Part shown: in pieces, positions 1-20,195 of the stretch
Numbering within the stretch: position 1 is the first letter of the stretch
Layout of the letters: the number at the start of each line of letters is the position of its first letter
Source: a virus
IMG/VR virus record: IMGVR_UViG_3300012954_001620
Span: 1-20,195 of that record
Reading direction: 5' to 3' (one strand)
Length of the DNA: 20,195 nt
Notes under the pieces: generated by a model
The model's database searches: none
What the model was told of the DNA's origin: nothing
The model's input: the letters and a program-made list of their open reading frames with translations, nothing else
Translations under genes and position numbers: made by a program

Positions 1-725
1 CCCGCCCATCTTGCTCCAACAGCTGAAGCTGCTAGTTTGCAATGTTCTATTTCTAATTCTGTTAATTCACAAATAATACCTTGGCCTCCTCTAGAGATAT
101 TAGTTCTAAAGTCGCCTGGAGGCGGCGTTCTAAACATAGAGCCGTATATTTCTCCGTCTACTACGTGAGCTCTTATATCTCCGCTGTGAGGTATGTATTC
201 TTGTAGTATTGCTCCGTCCCAATCTACTCGAGTATTCATAGTTTGAATAACTCCTTTTAATCCTAAAGGAGATTCCATTAGTGCTACTCCTACTCCATAA
301 GACCCTTCAAGTACTTTTAGTACTATAGGATATTGTAGGCCTGCTTGTTGAATTACATGGTCTATAAGTCCATCATACTCTGAAGGAACAAGTACTGTAT
401 TTGGTTGGTGTAGCCCTACTTGATTTAATGCTAGATAAGTTCTATATTTGTCATTACAGACTTCGATACAACTCCTAGTATTTATCATTGTACACCCTCT
501 GTATTCCATTTCTGTTATTTTATCTAACCAGCTTTTTCTGTTTTTTACTGACCCTCTTACAATACATATTGTATCTGAGTCAAACCAATCTCCAACTGGT
601 AAAACATTTACTGGAAACTCTTGAAATTCTATTTCAAGATCTTCACATATTCTACGTATTTCATTCAGTTCTCTGTTTCGGTACTCTGCGTTTACGTCGA
701 TTAAATCGACAACTGCAAGTTTCAT
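1..725 (-). CDS. RimK-like ATP-grasp ligase, 3' end missing (partial)
   Basis: An open frame of 241 codons starts at ATG 725-723 and runs off the left edge without a stop. Its translation reads as an ATP-grasp carboxylate-amine ligase of the RimK/glutathione synthase type. Residues 82-110 match the N...(D)K..T...L...G...P.T block (N82, D92-K93, T96, P108, T110). Residues 134-150 are the glycine-rich ATP loop IVLKVLEGSYGVGVALM with K137. Residues 174-199 hold the hinge LQEYI, the GDIR motif (D183, R185) and R199. Residues 203-216 read PGDFRTNISRGGQG, as in RimK. The C-terminal metal-binding D/E/N residues would lie beyond the edge. RimK enzymes add glutamate to the C-terminus of ribosomal protein S6, and relatives ligate other amino acids or peptides. 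Substrate here is unknown. ATG lies one base after the J stop and a GGAG ribosome site precedes it, so it is coupled to the tail-tip operon. Family assignment is firm; a role in virion or host protein modification is inference. Confidence 0.88.
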   Translation of the reverse strand, partial: MKLAVVDLIDVNAEYRNRELNEIRRICEDLEIEFQEFPVNVLPVGDWFDSDTICIVRGSVKNRKSWLDKITEMEYRGCTMINTRSCIEVCNDKYRTYLALNQVGLHQPNTVLVPSEYDGLIDHVIQQAGLQYPIVLKVLEGSYGVGVALMESPLGLKGVIQTMNTRVDWDGAILQEYIPHSGDIRAHVVDGEIYGSMFRTPPPGDFRTNISRGGQGIICELTELEIEHCKLAASAVGARWA

Positions 726-726
726 C

Positions 727-3700
727 TTATTCTCCGTTGAATTTGAAACTAAATCCTGATACAACGTTAATTACCGCTGTGAGTACGACACTTGCTGAAC
801 CAGTTCTAGCTAAAGTTATTGATTGAGAAGTTGTGCCAGTACCAGTTACCGTTGGGGTTCCTGTATGACCACTTCCACTAATTGTTGGAGCATCAAAATC
901 ATTATTTGTTGTGTCCAAGTTTATTACCACAGTAGATGTTGCTTGTTGCACACCTGCGGCATTTTTCCATCTAACAGTAAAAGTATGGGTAGTTGTATTT
1001 GGGTTATAGTTACCCGCTGCAAATCTTGACCAAGCTACCGTAGCTCCTCCGTCTACGAACCCTGTTATAATGTTAGTGTTTGTAAGAGATGCAATAGAAG
1101 TTAATCCAGTACCACCGAAAGCAGCACCTAGTTCGCCTTCAAAGTTAATAGTACCGTTAGCCGCTCTCATAACCCCTGTTTTTGCTGAAATATCTTCTCC
1201 AAATCCTCCTAAACTTTTTGGAATAGTTGGCAGTTTGGCTGTTGGAATAGAAGGTAATTGTGCAGATTTTAATGCAAGAGTTCCTGACCCTACATTATCA
1301 AATCCTGCTCTTATTCTTAATAGTTCTGCAGGGGTAAAAGAAGTTGTTCCGTCAAAGACACTAGCAACAATTCTGTTACTTGAGTCAATTGCTGAGTTTG
1401 CTCTACTTGCTCCAGTACTAATAGTAGATACTGCTACGTTATTAACTTTACCAGTTAGGTTTCCGCCTAGTATAGTAGATGTAGAATCTTGGTTAGCTGT
1501 AGCTCCAGCTGCTGCTCCAGACTTAACAGTACTAGCTGCTGTTCCACTAACAGTACCTGATACATTACCTGTAAAAGTGCCTGCATTATCAAAGTTTTTT
1601 GTGTTATCTGGACTCTTACCTGAATTTAGTCTTGTCTTTTCTGTAGACGATAATCTGTTATTTACTTTTGTTTGTGAGCCACTAGTACTTTCAAATAATA
1701 GAGTATCACTATCAGGTAGTTTTCCTGCTCTTAGTCTGTTTAGTTTTGTTCTTTCTGCACTCGAGAATACGTTTACATCTGTAGAACTTCCTTCATCAAT
1801 GTTGAATGAGAATATTCCTTCTGTAGCATTATCAGTAAACTCTGTTTTATTTGGTTTTACAGTAAAGGCTTTTCCACTTCCTACTACATCATCTTCATCA
1901 ATCTCATCTCTAATATCTGAGGAAGATTTATCTTCTACATTAGATAACGAAATATCTGCTTTGTTTTGTACATGAATTACTGGAGCTTCCCAAGTATAGT
2001 TAAATTGAAGATTAGGGTAACTTCCAGTTAGTTGCGCAACACCTTTAGATGACCATAGTTGCTTTCCTGATACTGCGGCTGGTGGGCTATCACTCCAGTT
2101 ATCTCCAGAGTTGGGATTATTTGTTGGTAAGTCTGGGTATGCTGTTGCATTTGGAGTTCCTGGGTTACCATTATGGTTTAGGAATATAAAGTTAGTATCT
2201 TGAAAACCTTTATCACTTAGTGAAGGAGTACTCCAAGATGGAGTGCCTGATACATTACCGCCTGCGGTAGCTTCTGTTACCAGCGCTCTGGAAATAGATA
2301 CAATTACACCTCTACCAGCTGCTGGTCTAGTTTGTGACCACCCTGTTGGAATACTTGCAACCACTCCCGTACTAAAATTATAAGTTCCTGTGCTTGGTGC
2401 AGAACTTGGGAATGAGGTAGATGAGCCAGCGACCCACCCACTACTAATTGCATAATAAAGTTCTATTTCTGCTACCTTTTTACCATCAGATCCTGGATTC
2501 CCGTCTTGTCCTGGATCACCGTCTTGTCCATCGTCCCCTGTTTTTGACTTAGTAAGAGTTTGTACTTTACTAAAACTGAAACTTTTATTAGCACCAGTTT
2601 TTCCTGATATGGTATAAGTTATTGAATATAAATCTGTTCCTGTTGCAGGAGTATGATTTCCTACACGTGCAAATCGTACTGGAGCACTTCCTTGTGAAGT
2701 TATACTTCCTGTACTACTAAGACTTCCATTTCCAGAAATACTAACATTGTACTTACCTCTAGTAGCAGTACCTGTTGTAAAGTCAAGTAGAGTTGTGCCT
2801 TCAAACACTTTAATATCAGTACCACTTCCTGTTACATCAGAAACTGCTCCTGTTTTACTTGCAGGGTATACGTGGGCTTCATTTGTAAGTAGTGGAGTTA
2901 TTTGATTATCTAAACCGTCAACAATCTCTAGTGTGGTAGAATCTGATGCTCCTCCATCATTTGCGTGTAGTGTATAAGTAACTGTCATACCGTCTACTGC
3001 GTTTGCAGCAGTAACTACGCAACTTGGGTCTGCATGAGAGTTATCGACACTAGTTATTGTACCTGCACTTGTTGTCCATTGACCGTTTGCTGTGGTATTT
3101 GATGTTGATGCTCTGACTGTAATTTGTTGGGGAGATACTTCTTTTGAAAAACCATTTGATCCGCTTAATCCTGCTTCTCCTTCTGCAAAGAATAATTGAA
3201 AGAATATATGTGCACTTGGAGTAACTACTACTACTTTAGCATTATCTCCATCTGTTCCTTGTGAGGATTTAGTAAATGATAGTACCTTATCTGCTATCAA
3301 TAGATTTGCTCTACCTCTGTCAAACAATCGCATTGTTGCTGTTGCAGATGTATGAGCGTCCATATCGCCATCGCCAATAGTTACTTCTCCACTTCCTGAT
3401 ATTACTACATCACTATCATTATCAAATCCAGTTCTTGCTTGTAGAGATATACCAAAAGTATTTTGGGCAGTACCACTTGATGCAAAAGTATATGCTTGAC
3501 TTCCTCTTTTTACAGTAAAGTTACAAGCAAATGCACTTTCATTTGTTACTGTTCCATCAGTATTTGCATCAAAAGTAAAGTTTTCGTTTGTTGCATTAAC
3601 TTCAAAAGGAGATTCTCCTTGTGAATTACCAAACTTCTGTAAAGTGTAAGCTCCGCTTCCGTCTTTTACAACTTTACCCATAATAGTATCTGTCTTATAG

Positions 3701-15033: not shown

Positions 15034-15456
15034 CTACTTTTTTGCTCGCCTACTGGAGGCGTCTTGCTTACGTTTAAGCTCTGCGTTGATATTTATCGTA
15101 CTTGAACTTTCTATATGTTTCAAGAAAAAGCAAACTGTTTTCTTGTCTCCAACTTCATTTATATTTAATAAAGTCATTAAAGGAGACCAATCTTTACCCA
15201 TGTAAGACCCACTTGCTCCGTCCCATTTATCTGGCAACATCGCATGTACAAGAAAAGCCTCCTGAATCTCTAAGGGAAAATCACTTAGTTCAGGTGGCAT
15301 CTCCTCTAAGTCAGGTTCTTGACCTAATTGGTCGCACATTTGTAGGTATGCATCTATACTAATATTATTAGTAAAGTACCTCTGTATTAAAGCAAGAGCC
15401 CAGGCTACTTGCTCTGCGTAAAATTTTCTAAGTCGCCTACCTGTTCTGTTACCCAA
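15034..15456 (-). CDS. Tail assembly chaperone, gpT-like frame expressed by -1 frameshift (gpGT)
   Basis: This frame is in the -1 register of the preceding chaperone gene and overlaps its last 52 bases. It is open from a TTG at 15456, giving 140 residues, but a lone start there has no ribosome site. The likelier product is a fusion: 144 residues of the first frame, then this frame from the Tyr codon at 15420-15418 (residue 13, YAEQVAWALALIQRYF), about 272 residues in total. The T part has an acidic stretch at about 50-65 (EPDLEEMPPELSDFPLE) and a basic C-terminus (KRKQDASSRRAKK). In lambda, gpGT binds the tape measure through T and recruits tail protein through G, and is absent from the finished tail. 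Position directly before the tape measure and the slippery site at 15420-15426 support this. Sequence similarity of T domains is weak, so context carries the call. Confidence 0.88.
   Translation of the reverse strand: MGNRTGRRLRKFYAEQVAWALALIQRYFTNNISIDAYLQMCDQLGQEPDLEEMPPELSDFPLEIQEAFLVHAMLPDKWDGASGSYMGKDWSPLMTLLNINEVGDKKTVCFFLKHIESSSTININAELKRKQDASSRRAKK
15389..15426 (-). promoter_or_regulatory. Programmed -1 ribosomal frameshift site with downstream stem-loop
   Basis: On the minus strand the chaperone codons GAA AAT TTT contain the heptamer A_AAT_TTT (15426-15420). It fits X_XXY_YYZ in the right register, so both tRNAs can re-pair after slipping back one base, moving from the G frame to the T frame. 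Four bases later a stem-loop runs 15415-15389: eight pairs (15415-15408 with 15396-15389, including one G-U), a bulged T at 15407, three pairs (15406-15404 with 15399-15397) and a CTGG loop. The zero-frame stop TAG (15407-15405) sits inside it. The arrangement was read by eye; no folding energy was computed. Confidence 0.85.
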
Positions 15457-15851
15457 GTATCAAAATCATTTGAATTTTTCATAAGAACTTCAACATTCTC
15501 TTTTGAAAACTCTAATTCTTTTTCTTCATCTTCAGGAGACATATCCCCTAGTAGTAACATATTTTTAGCATATCCAAGTTTGAAGCCACTCCACCCTTTA
15601 ATAACTGCTGTGGTATATTCTGCAAGAAACTTATCATCGTCCATTTTTTCTTCGTAGCCTCTAGTTTTCTTATTGAATACTTGAGATACGCAACGATTTC
15701 TAAGTTTCATTAACTCTTCTCTAGCTAGATAGCAAAGCTTTACTTTAAAACCTTCGCAACCAGGATAGTCAAATTCTACTGTTTTTGTTGGAGTCATTAG
15801 ACTCTTTAACGAGACTGCTTTTGCAGGCTCTTTTTTTACTGTATCGTTCAT
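15405..15851 (-). CDS. Tail assembly chaperone, gpG-like
   Basis: 148 residues. It sits between the major tail protein and the tape measure, the fixed place of the G chaperone. The sequence is acidic and helical: VEFDYPGCEGFKVKLCYLAR (about 26-45), ELMKLRNRC, a KKTRGYEEKMDDD segment, AVIKGWSGFKLG at about 82-93, and a C-terminal LMKNSNDFDTWVTEQVGDLE. It acts in the cytoplasm to keep the tape measure soluble and help tail protein load. It ends at TAG 15405-15407 unless ribosomes slip at 15420-15426. The ATG at 15851 is preceded by TAGGA about 10 bases upstream, just after the T-run of the terminator that follows the major tail gene. The assignment rests on position, the overlap with a -1 frame and general composition. 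Confidence 0.9.
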   Translation of the reverse strand: MNDTVKKEPAKAVSLKSLMTPTKTVEFDYPGCEGFKVKLCYLAREELMKLRNRCVSQVFNKKTRGYEEKMDDDKFLAEYTTAVIKGWSGFKLGYAKNMLLLGDMSPEDEEKELEFSKENVEVLMKNSNDFDTWVTEQVGDLENFTQSK

Positions 15852-17698: not shown

Positions 17699-19341
17699 TA
17701 GTTTCTCCTAAGTGAAGTTGGTTGTCTTCCTATTATTCCCATAGCAAGTTCTCTAATACTTGCTCCTATAATTTTGCGGGGGTCTCTTTGAGTACTTCCC
17801 TGCTTATTTCCTGGCTCAAAAGTTTCGTAAGGATCTCTCATATAAGTATAGTCTATCCCTACACCGCCTCTTGGGCCAATATTTACATTCTCAACTCTGG
17901 CTGAGTTTGCAAACCTACCAGTTCTAAATTGTAGTGCTGGTGATGTCATTTTACTCGCTACCATTTCTGGGAGCATTTCATTTAACAAGTTTCTTAAAGC
18001 TATTGGACTTTCTGCTGTTTTTGCAGTTGCAATACTTTTTCCTTTTTTACGTCGTCCCGGTTGCTTAAAAGAAACAGCGGTGTTTAACTTCCTACCTGCG
18101 CTTTGTTTCTTTTTACCTGCATTTGCTCCGTAACTAATTCCTTTCTTTTGTCCTCTAGTAGCTTTTAATACTTTTTTTGATTCGGCTAATAATTTTTTAT
18201 TAACTTTTAATCTAAAATCAGGTCTTGTTCCTTTTACTCCTAGTAGACTTTCTAATAGAATTGTATTGTGAAGTTTTTGAGACCTGTTCCTAACTGTATC
18301 TGAGGTTGTTAGGTCTGGTTGCAAGTGAGCAAACTTCTTTACTAATCTATTCCTTATATCTGTTGCTTTCAGGTTAACAAACTTTCGCATCTCTTTTGCG
18401 TCATAGCTTGCTAATGCGTAGTTTCCTTTAGCATCTGTAGCATGGAGGTCAATAATTGTTTCGTCTTTTACTCCTCCATGTTTACTATCTTTAGTAAATC
18501 TATGAATACTATATCTTGTTGATAAGGCGTCTGTAATTTCTTCTCTTACTTCCCCCATCATTCCTAAAACTTGTTTATTTTTTACTTTTGTTTTTATTTT
18601 TCCCTTTACAAACTTTCTCCATTCTTTAGCTACTGATAGTACTGCTACGGTTGTTTGTATTCCACCACTTTCTACTAATCTTCCTGATACTGCTTTTGCA
18701 GTACCGTGTCCTCTGATTAACGGATTTTTTCTTCCTTTAGCATACTTGGTGTCGGTTCTGCCAGGTAATGCTTGATCTTCGTCAGGGCCTTGTCGTTCTC
18801 TCTTATTCGTTTTAGGCGATGTTACTTGCTCAATATCGATATAGTTAAAAGCCTCACTTCTAGCTTTCTCATAAAGGTCTAGAGTGGCTGAGTTCATTAT
18901 ATTAACATACTTACCACTTAGCTTACTTTTAGTTACTTTATTTAGCATACCTTTAGCTAAATCTATTACTACTTGATACTTTCCTCTTTTATAAACTTTA
19001 ATGTCAAAATCTTTAGAGATTTTTTTCATTGCTGCTTCAACCCTGAATTTATCTAATAGTATTGTTTCTATACCATGGTGTGCAGCTTTTTTAGCTAATG
19101 TCTTATCTGTTATATAAGGAGGTCCGCCCTCCCATATATTTCTGCCGTCTCTTTCAGCTTTTATCTGCTGTTCTTCTACTTGAAAATTCCAGTCATTTAT
19201 CCACTCTTGAAGTTCTGGCTCCATTGTTAAAGTAACAATATTTCTAGTAATTGTATACTTATGTTGAAAGTGCTTTGCAAAAAAGCTTCTACCTGAAGAC
19301 TTTATTTCCTTTCTTAGATGCGCTTCTACGTCTCTAATCAC
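17698..19341 (-). CDS. Neck / head-tail joining protein with gp10-like C-terminus and long basic extension
   Basis: 547 residues starting at GTG 19341, whose first bases overlap the upstream TGA (GTGA). Only about the last 105 residues (443-547) look familiar: LRNLLNEMLPEMVASKM, FRTGRFANSARVENV and DYTYMRDPYETFEPGNKQGS, then RDPRKIIGASIRELA. These resemble the HK97 gp10-type neck or minor tail proteins, usually about 110-150 residues in total. The remaining 440 residues are not recognised. They are rich in Lys and Arg, with a cluster at about 397-442 (GKKKQSAGRK, GRRKKGKSI) and helical N-terminal segments. Position between connector and tail terminator indicates the neck. The basic extension could contact DNA in the neck channel or be a separate protein fused upstream; neither is shown by the sequence. 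Lysine-rich runs are not simple low-complexity repeats, and the frame is intact. Confidence 0.72.
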   Translation of the reverse strand: MIRDVEAHLRKEIKSSGRSFFAKHFQHKYTITRNIVTLTMEPELQEWINDWNFQVEEQQIKAERDGRNIWEGGPPYITDKTLAKKAAHHGIETILLDKFRVEAAMKKISKDFDIKVYKRGKYQVVIDLAKGMLNKVTKSKLSGKYVNIMNSATLDLYEKARSEAFNYIDIEQVTSPKTNKRERQGPDEDQALPGRTDTKYAKGRKNPLIRGHGTAKAVSGRLVESGGIQTTVAVLSVAKEWRKFVKGKIKTKVKNKQVLGMMGEVREEITDALSTRYSIHRFTKDSKHGGVKDETIIDLHATDAKGNYALASYDAKEMRKFVNLKATDIRNRLVKKFAHLQPDLTTSDTVRNRSQKLHNTILLESLLGVKGTRPDFRLKVNKKLLAESKKVLKATRGQKKGISYGANAGKKKQSAGRKLNTAVSFKQPGRRKKGKSIATAKTAESPIALRNLLNEMLPEMVASKMTSPALQFRTGRFANSARVENVNIGPRGGVGIDYTYMRDPYETFEPGNKQGSTQRDPRKIIGASIRELAMGIIGRQPTSLRRN

Positions 19342-19934
19342 ACTACAACTCTATATAAGTCTAGTACTCTTTTGATGTGGTCTGGAAAGTCAGTACTCGT
19401 CCTCATTCCTGAAGTGCCTTGGTTTTGCAATGTTGCTCCACCTAGAGTCTGTCTTTGCTTATGCTCATCTTTTACATAGTAAGTAATTAGATCAAATATA
19501 GCAAGTTTTAAATCTCTTGGGCACTCAGCGTAGCCAGCATTGTAAGTAATTCTTACAGCTCCTACTCCCTTTGCCCACATTTTGTGATTACCATTATCAT
19601 CAGTTCTGATTATAGCATCAGAATCTAAGTCTGCATAGTATTCATAATTCCCTGTAGTTAGTTCCGCGTACGCTCCGCTATACGAGGTTCTTTCTTCTAC
19701 TTTATCAACTGCCGTTAACGGACTCTCGCTGACTATTATCGTTGAGGTGTAGTTATCATCTATTGAAAAAGTTTCTACTTTATCTGTGGAGATATAGTCT
19801 ACAAACGAAGTACCACAGTACTTCTTGACAAGGTCAGATACTTGAGGAACTATTACATTGAGACGGTCGTCTTCTTTCTCGCCTCTAATTCCTTCAGCGT
19901 CTTTGTATTCGTTTGTTGTTACTAAATCTGCCAT
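19338..19934 (-). CDS. Head-tail connector (gp6-like adaptor) protein
   Basis: 198 residues. It has the usual adaptor pattern of HK97 gp6 / SPP1 gp15 families: an N-terminal helix (MADLVTTNEYKDAEGIRGE), a helix LNVIVPQVSDLVKKYCGTSF at about 26-45, beta strands with DKVETFSIDD and SPLTAVDKVEERTSY, then VGAVRITYNAGYAECPRDLK and the helix LAIFDLITYYVKDEH near 145-160, close to the C-terminus. Such proteins form a ring under the portal. It follows the capsid gene directly and precedes the neck protein, overlapping it by GTGA. The ATG (19934-19932) comes only 10 bases after the T-run of the capsid terminator, and no Shine-Dalgarno lies in the intervening bases, so initiation may depend on read-through or an AT-rich unstructured leader. 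A TATAAT hexamer at 19943-19938 is noted but has no matching -35. Confidence 0.85.
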   Translation of the reverse strand: MADLVTTNEYKDAEGIRGEKEDDRLNVIVPQVSDLVKKYCGTSFVDYISTDKVETFSIDDNYTSTIIVSESPLTAVDKVEERTSYSGAYAELTTGNYEYYADLDSDAIIRTDDNGNHKMWAKGVGAVRITYNAGYAECPRDLKLAIFDLITYYVKDEHKQRQTLGGATLQNQGTSGMRTSTDFPDHIKRVLDLYRVVV

Positions 19935-19944
19935 AATATTATAT

Positions 19945-19976
19945 AAAAAGTATAGTGGGGGCGAACCCCCACTATA
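19945..19976 (-). terminator. Intrinsic terminator after the major capsid protein gene
   Basis: On the minus strand a perfect 11-pair stem (19976-19966 with 19961-19951) closes a TTCG tetraloop (19965-19962). It includes five consecutive G-C pairs and is followed, after one C at 19950, by five T (19949-19945). No T-run lies on the plus-strand side, so it acts on minus-strand transcripts only. It begins 9 bases after the capsid stop codon and should cut most messages there, leaving fewer copies of the neck genes. Confidence 0.93.
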
Positions 19977-19985
19977 GGTTAGCTA

Positions 19986-20195
19986 TTAACTAGCTTTGAA
20001 CTTATAAGCCCACTTAGAAGTAGCACCATCGATTAGATCGGTGAAACCAATTCTTTGTGAAGCAACAAGAACTCTTCTCTGGTTAGCAACTTCGTAGTCT
20101 GACTCAATTGTCACACCTCTAAGTCTAGGCATTACGTAGTTTCTTGCATATACTGCAATCGCTCCGTACCCATTAGCTGCTTGAGCAGGGAATTC
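19986..20195 (-). CDS. Major capsid protein, C-terminal end only (partial)
   Basis: The last 69 codons are in frame from the right edge, ending at TAA 19988-19986 followed directly by TAG (19985-19983), a double stop. The fragment reads EFPAQAANGYGAIAVYARNY, then VMPRLRGVTIESDYEVANQR, then RVLVASQRIGFTDLIDGATS and a WAYKFKAS end. The block NY.MPRLRGVTIE.DYEV..Q...LVASQRIGF is what HK97-fold capsid proteins show at their C-terminal end, where the P-domain strand meets the A-domain. Placement before a connector gene and a strong terminator fits. The rest, including any scaffolding domain or protease site, lies outside the window. Role inferred from motif and context; confidence moderately high. 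Confidence 0.85.
   Translation of the reverse strand, partial: EFPAQAANGYGAIAVYARNYVMPRLRGVTIESDYEVANQRRVLVASQRIGFTDLIDGATSKWAYKFKAS

What the first reader, a model, noticed from the sequence alone, without database searches (positions are those of the whole stretch)
1..725. RimK-type ATP-grasp ligase directly coupled to the host-recognition gene J
A complete start and most of the ATP-grasp core sit one base after the J stop with its own GGAG site, so tail-tip and ligase are made together. RimK enzymes add glutamates or other residues to protein C-termini. A ligase in a tail-tip operon raises the idea that it modifies J or another virion protein, or alters a host target such as S6 during infection. 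I do not know of a characterised phage system of this layout.
Basis: partly seen in the sequence, partly recalled or inferred. Interest (0 to 1): 0.66.

Follow-up and report, generated by a model that had tools for sequence, protein, structure and literature searches.

The report
Ligase cassette swapped with tail-tip end
A phage tail-tip gene is followed by a gene for a peptide-adding enzyme and two acetyltransferase-like genes; the whole block, with the end of the tail-tip protein, is swapped in close relatives for a self-cutting protein end plus another acetyltransferase, which suggests that these phages chemically finish the tip of their tail.

Summary
Window 725-3 (minus strand) holds residues 1-241 of a RimK-family ATP-grasp protein, starting 1 base after the J stop with GGAG inside J's last codons. 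The gene is cut by the contig end. Six related viral contigs carry the whole gene (297-299 aa), always directly after J, with the metal-site residues (D244, E260, N262) present and dN/dS 0.16-0.20. Two GNAT-like paralogues follow in overlapping frames.

The new result is a cassette swap. Otherwise near-identical phages (91-93% DNA identity before, 97% after) replace J's C-terminal region + RimK + two GNATs by a J C-terminus ending in an intein-like Hint domain + one different GNAT. Among contigs with a visible J end, RimK occurs only with non-Hint J ends (6 of 6) and Hint/Vint-like J ends never have RimK (18 of 18). Where J has neither, neither GNAT family was detected.

Most other phage RimKs found carry a RimB-like protease domain and, where looked at, lie by regA and DNA polymerase; the J-linked clade lacks that domain. 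Best reading: the enzyme modifies J's own C-terminus, perhaps at the invariant -FKFNGE end. The cassette is shown; the substrate and chemistry are inferred.

The parts
1..725 (-). RimK-family ATP-grasp ligase, N-terminal 241 residues; runs off the contig end (full length 297-299 aa in relatives)
   Evidence: Pfam RimK 1.4e-20; PDB 7qys/5zct/4iwx; 88% identical to the complete L005 gene
732..735 (-). GGAG ribosome-binding site for the ligase, lying inside the last codons of J (AAC GGA GAA TAA G ATG)
   Evidence: Read from sequence; GGAGAATAA conserved in L002, L003, L004, L005, L014
727..7395 (-). Tail-tip host-specificity protein J, 2222 aa
   Evidence: Phage-tail_3 4.8e-22; PHROG central tail fiber J 3.2e-131
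727..1392 (-). Cassette-specific C-terminal part of J: 82% DNA identity continues into RimK against RimK-type relative L016, no alignment here with Hint-type relative L018; ends -GFSFKFNGE
   Evidence: blastn blocks (window reverse-complement 18804-20190); last 12 codons
727..744 (-). J C-terminal FKFNGE (with stop TAA at 727-729 and codons TTC AAA TTC AAC GGA GAA above it), proposed acceptor end; identical in all seven contigs of this J type
   Evidence: role as acceptor is inference

Best explanation
This is a tail-tip finishing cassette. Shown: J's C-terminal region, a protease-less RimK-family ligase and two GNAT-like proteins form one translationally coupled unit that is exchanged as a block among close relatives, against a unit made of a J C-terminus ending in a Hint autoprocessing domain plus a different GNAT. 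Inferred: the RimK enzyme activates a carboxylate with ATP (acyl phosphate) and joins an amino acid or amine to J's own C-terminus, most simply by adding glutamate or a related residue to the invariant C-terminal glutamate of -FKFNGE, as RimK does on S6. In relatives the Hint domain would instead make a thioester at J's Gly-rich end, so the two cassettes would be alternative ways to activate J's C-terminus, and the GNATs would acylate the added group or another amine on J. The effect would be a change in the receptor-facing tip, hence in adsorption.
For: Direct adjacency and order J-RimK-GNAT1-GNAT2 in 6 of 6 contigs with visible downstream DNA, plus J-RimK in the window. Block exchange: L122 versus L123 is 91.5% identical through the J core, unalignable across the cassette, and 97.3% identical again from about 21 bp after the last GNAT stop. 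RimK and J-borne Hint/Vint are mutually exclusive, 6 versus 18 contigs. Neither GNAT family was detected where J has neither feature. ATP-grasp and metal residues are present and dN/dS is 0.16-0.20. RimB-like domain absent here, present in 59 of 59 relatives of the first large set. RimK adds Glu to the C-terminus of S6 and RimB removes it (PMC10092738, PMC11957791). A phage RimK-RimB protein, YerA41 g112, was found in purified virions by LC-MS/MS (PMC7354516).
Against: No substrate is demonstrated. Genes beside a hypervariable J end can hitchhike with it without acting on it. The conserved -GE end overlaps the RimK ribosome-binding site, so its conservation may be for translation; neighbouring DNA is also conserved. 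TIGR00768 scores 137 bits, just below its cut-off of 143, and no known equivalog is matched above cut-off, so the amino acid added is unknown. The RimK-cassette GNATs have only sub-threshold Pfam support and a failed fold model. YerA41 particles also held many non-structural proteins.
Confidence: 0.42

Rival explanations
1. Host takeover: the ligase glutamylates host ribosomal protein S6 (or another host protein) late in infection and simply travels in the tail operon.
For: Same family as S6-glutamate ligase. PHROG 2599 files phage members under host takeover. RimK-RimB fusions in T4-like contigs sit between regA, a translation repressor, and DNA polymerase.
Against: The J-linked gene lies in the late tail module, lacks the RimB-like eraser domain, and is exchanged with J's C-terminus and replaced by a J-borne Hint domain, which a ribosome target would not explain.
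Confidence: 0.2
2. Hitchhiking cargo: RimK and GNATs are accessory genes inserted at a recombination hotspot behind J, making or modifying a small molecule or surface compound, with no direct action on J.
For: The J C-terminal region is highly recombinogenic and other J types carry unrelated small genes here. RimK-family and GNAT enzymes also act on small molecules, for example MptN and CofF, which score next best among NCBIfam models.
Against: RimK is tied to one J C-terminal type in every case, start and stop codons are coupled, and the alternative cassette also carries a protein-activating chemistry on J plus a GNAT.
Confidence: 0.25
3. The ligase modifies another virion protein made next door (for example the 112-aa LtfC-like protein or the downstream fibre-like proteins), not J.
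For: The cassette lies directly upstream of those genes. A second, independent protease-less RimK clade (L170-L173) lies between terminase and tail sheath genes.
Against: Downstream proteins are shared by RimK and Hint phages at 97% DNA identity in the closest pair, so they do not vary with the enzyme; the J end does.
Confidence: 0.1

Closest known systems
RimK, S6 alpha-L-glutamate ligase (E. coli, Pseudomonas RimABK)
   Same: Same ATP-grasp family, signature R-x4-GDFR-x-N-x3-GG and D/E/N metal residues; known members add residues to a protein C-terminus
   Different: Coupled to phage J, no RimA or RimB, below the rimK_fam and S6-ligase equivalog cut-offs; target unknown
Phage RimK-RimB fusions (Mosig, YerA41, many IMG/VR contigs; PHROG 2599)
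   Same: Closest sequence relatives, about 40% identity
   Different: They carry a C-terminal retropepsin-like domain and lie by regA/DNA polymerase or RNR
LysX/ArgX with the carrier protein LysW
   Same: RimK-family ligases that attach an amino acid to the C-terminal Glu of a carrier protein (from own knowledge, LysW ends in -WGE); structures 3vpb, 3vpd and 1uc8 match
   Different: No LysW-like gene seen; the likeness of -NGE to -WGE is two residues and only a lead
Bacterial intein-like (BIL)/Hint autoprocessing domains
   Same: The alternative J cassette ends in one: CFLPGT start, VHN end, match to BIL structure 2lwy (E 0.0044) and to intein C-terminal model TIGR01443 above cut-off
   Different: Here it is a C-terminal domain of a phage J protein, swapped against a ligase gene; no paper describing this was found

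Membership tests
RimK-like ATP-grasp ligase family (Pfam PF08443) | Pfam domain above gathering score | tested here: met
   74.1 bits in the window fragment, 100.5 in full-length L005, cut-off 21
RimK-like ATP-grasp ligase family (Pfam PF08443) | Metal-binding Asp, Glu and Asn of the ATP-grasp core | tested here: met
   In full-length relatives only: D244, E260 and N262 invariant across nine phage proteins and aligned with RimK structures; absent from the window because the contig ends
RimK family alpha-L-glutamate ligase (TIGR00768) | Curated whole-protein score | tested here: not met
   137.1 bits against 143.4
S6--glutamate ligase (PRK10446) | Equivalog score | tested here: not met
   73.8 bits against 331
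RimK/RimB system | RimB-like retropepsin partner, fused or adjacent | tested here: not met
   No such domain in the J-linked proteins or cassette
RimK family alpha-L-glutamate ligase (TIGR00768) | ATP-dependent addition of glutamate to a protein C-terminus | not testable with these tools
   Needs biochemistry or mass spectrometry
GNAT acetyltransferase (GNAT1 and GNAT2 of the RimK cassette) | GNAT fold and acetyl-CoA motif | tested here: inconclusive
   Acetyltransf_3 best E 2.8e-4 but below cut-off; GNAT1 and GNAT2 homologous at 1e-15; model pLDDT 35
GNAT acetyltransferase (protein of the Hint cassette) | GNAT fold | tested here: met
   Model pLDDT 81; Foldseek best 5.7e-8, GNATs including RimL, RimJ and SpeG
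Hint/BIL domain (alternative J end) | N-terminal Cys, internal TxGH, C-terminal HN motif | tested here: met
   CFLPGT, TAGH, LVHN in sequence; TIGR01443 20.2 bits against 15.6; Pfam Hint models below cut-off

The most novel reading that the evidence does not exclude
A phage host-recognition protein is covalently finished at its C-terminus by one of two interchangeable chemistries, an ATP-grasp ligase acting in trans or a Hint domain acting in cis, each with its own GNAT, and phages switch between them by recombination to change the receptor-binding tip.
Probability: 0.3. Interest if true: 0.85.

Novelty: new variant of a known kind. Interest (0 to 1): 0.62.

Why it matters
Enzymatic amino-acid addition to a phage receptor-binding protein is, as far as I know, not described; the literature searches found none. 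The swap against a Hint domain gives a natural two-armed comparison and a specific testable site. If true, it would mean that phages can diversify host recognition by post-translational modification and not only by sequence change.

Tried and rejected
Searched genome contigs twice (ligase alignment, J core): no relatives, so no host or prophage was identified. The GNAT genes and the Hint J end have no match in named phages. Fold model of GNAT1 was unusable, pLDDT 35, and was not searched. Profile comparison of the last J domains of RimK type and Hint type found no homology, so I dropped the idea that both tails extend the same domain. Considered that lack of the RimB domain marks virion-linked RimKs: L170-L173 and S-RIM8 fit, but Melnitz lacks it and lies beside DNA polymerase, and S-CAM8 lacks it and lies beside psbA/psbD, so this is not a rule. 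Conservation of -FKFNGE was checked at codon level: 10 of the last 12 residues are invariant against 3-9 of 12 elsewhere, but the DNA there is conserved too. Window ends and contig redundancy: L016, L044, L122 and others are the same contig as L005, and contigs, not loci, were counted.

Full report
What is there. The window is a 20,195-base virus record and holds a lambda-like tail module on the minus strand: tail completion, tail assembly chaperones, tape measure, M-, L-, K-, I-like proteins and J. J ends at 729..727. One base later a second gene starts at 725 and runs off the contig end. GGAG at 735..732, within J's last codons, precedes it. Its 241 residues are a RimK-family ATP-grasp protein.

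Completing the picture from relatives. Six other IMG/VR contigs carry the full gene: 3300000101_000239, 3300000116_000099, 3300000115_002860, 3300032073_002332, 3300020451_000368 and 3300012952_000219. In each it follows J by one or two bases. The protein has 297-299 residues, and the Asp, Glu and Asn of the metal site are present (D244, E260 and N262 in L005). It evolves under purifying selection, dN/dS 0.16 for window versus L005 and 0.20 for L005 versus L014. It is followed in overlapping frames by two proteins of 205-206 and 227 residues. These are paralogues of each other (E about 1e-15) and weakly match the GNAT family Acetyltransf_3. Their fold model failed, so GNAT is a probable, not a proven, assignment. 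Then come a 112-aa protein, whose relatives in T4-like marine phages are annotated 'L-shaped tail fiber protein assembly', and further fibre-like proteins.

The cassette swap. I collected relatives by the J core and by the 112-aa downstream gene and read what lies between. Three arrangements share this position. (a) J ending in -FKFNGE, then RimK, GNAT1 and GNAT2: six contigs plus the window, where the GNATs lie beyond the end. (b) J ending in a Hint domain (CFLPGT ... TAGH ... LVHNSK, after a run of glycines), then one GNAT of 212-231 residues: 15 contigs. Two of these (L127, L134) carry a Hint followed by a second, Vint-like domain. (c) J ending in the Vint-like domain alone, then a GNAT of the same family: three contigs. 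Other J types have none of these features and different small genes. RimK and J-borne Hint/Vint never occur together (6 against 18; Fisher p 7e-6). The contigs are related, so that p-value overstates the independent evidence.

The exchange is recent and clean. The RimK-type contig of L005 (L122) and the Hint-type contig of L018 (L123) are 91.5% identical through the J core, do not align across the cassette, and are 97.3% identical over the next 8.5 kb, with homology resuming about 21 bases after the stop codon of the last GNAT in both. The unit exchanged is therefore J's C-terminal region together with its following enzyme genes.

Nature of the alternative cassette. The Hint domain matches a solved bacterial intein-like domain (2lwy, E 0.0044) and the intein C-terminal model above its cut-off; Pfam Hint models are below cut-off. 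The GNAT of that cassette folds confidently (pLDDT 81) and Foldseek places it with RimL, RimJ and SpeG-type acetyltransferases (best E 5.7e-8). The two GNAT families are not clearly homologous beyond the short acetyl-CoA motif region.

Where the ligase comes from. Close relatives are common in viral contigs and all 59 examined in that set carry a C-terminal retropepsin-like DTG domain, as in RimB; in L006 this domain is Pfam Zn_protease. In the five long loci read, and in phage Mosig, the fusion gene sits between a regA-like translation repressor and DNA polymerase (regA named from sequence by eye in the contigs, by annotation in Mosig). The J-linked proteins form one strongly supported clade and lack the protease domain. 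Another protease-less clade (L170-L173) lies between terminase and tail sheath genes. Literature: RimK adds glutamates to the C-terminus of S6 and RimB removes them (PMC10092738; PMC11957791). In YerA41 the RimK-family protein was detected in purified particles (PMC7354516, Table 3), along with many other non-structural proteins.

Mechanism. I commit to J's C-terminus as the most likely substrate, confidence 0.42. Steps shown: coupling, conservation, exchange as a block with J's C-terminus, intact catalytic residues, mutual exclusion with Hint. Steps inferred: ATP-dependent activation of a carboxylate, attachment of an amino acid or amine at the -FKFNGE end, acylation by the GNATs, effect on adsorption. 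The chemical parallel (acyl phosphate by RimK, thioester by Hint, a GNAT in both) is what makes the alternative cassettes look like two solutions to one problem; it is an argument, not a demonstration. Caveat on the acceptor: the last codons of J double as the ligase's ribosome-binding site, so conservation of -GE has another possible cause.

Limits. All relatives are uncultivated contigs; no host is known, no isolate has the cassette, and no genome contig matched. That the phages are marine is inferred from their relatives and not from sample records. Few independent lineages of the RimK cassette exist (three sequence groups: L005-like, the window, and L014-like). The absence of published descriptions rests on an open-access library only.

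Noticed in passing
L018, L026, L032, L035, L130 and others (J C-terminus): J proteins of close relatives end in a poly-Gly stretch followed by a C-terminal Hint (intein-like) domain, apparently undescribed for phage J proteins in the papers searched.
   Followed up: yes
L127:1-3349 and L134:1-2928: J C-terminus carries two autoprocessing-like domains in tandem, Hint ending VHN, a Gly run, then a Vint-like domain starting CLTPAM.
   Followed up: partly
L170-L173, for example L170:4695-5765: A RimK-family gene without the RimB-like domain sits between terminase large subunit and tail sheath genes of T4-like phages, an independent link of RimK to virion genes.
   Followed up: partly
L005:19065-20723 (also L003): Very long Thr/Asn-rich repeat protein (NTTTxFTTTTTYNTT type) at the end of the tail module; function unknown.
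   Followed up: no
L005:15199-18834: 1211-aa protein built of repeats of the type ITAAKIADNAVTTAKIA, fibre-like.
   Followed up: no
window:15034-15456 and 15405-15851: Two overlapping tail assembly chaperone ORFs in the place where lambda-like phages make G and GT by frameshifting; no slippery site was tested.
   Followed up: no
L150:977-1572: The Hint-cassette GNAT is split into two frames, a frameshift or sequencing error.
   Followed up: no
L009:8539-8913 and L009:10763-11143 (phage YerA41): Near the RimK-RimB gene of YerA41 the record annotates a mono-ADP-ribosylating protein and a protein with some similarity to LysW, a carrier protein used by RimK-family ligases.
   Followed up: no
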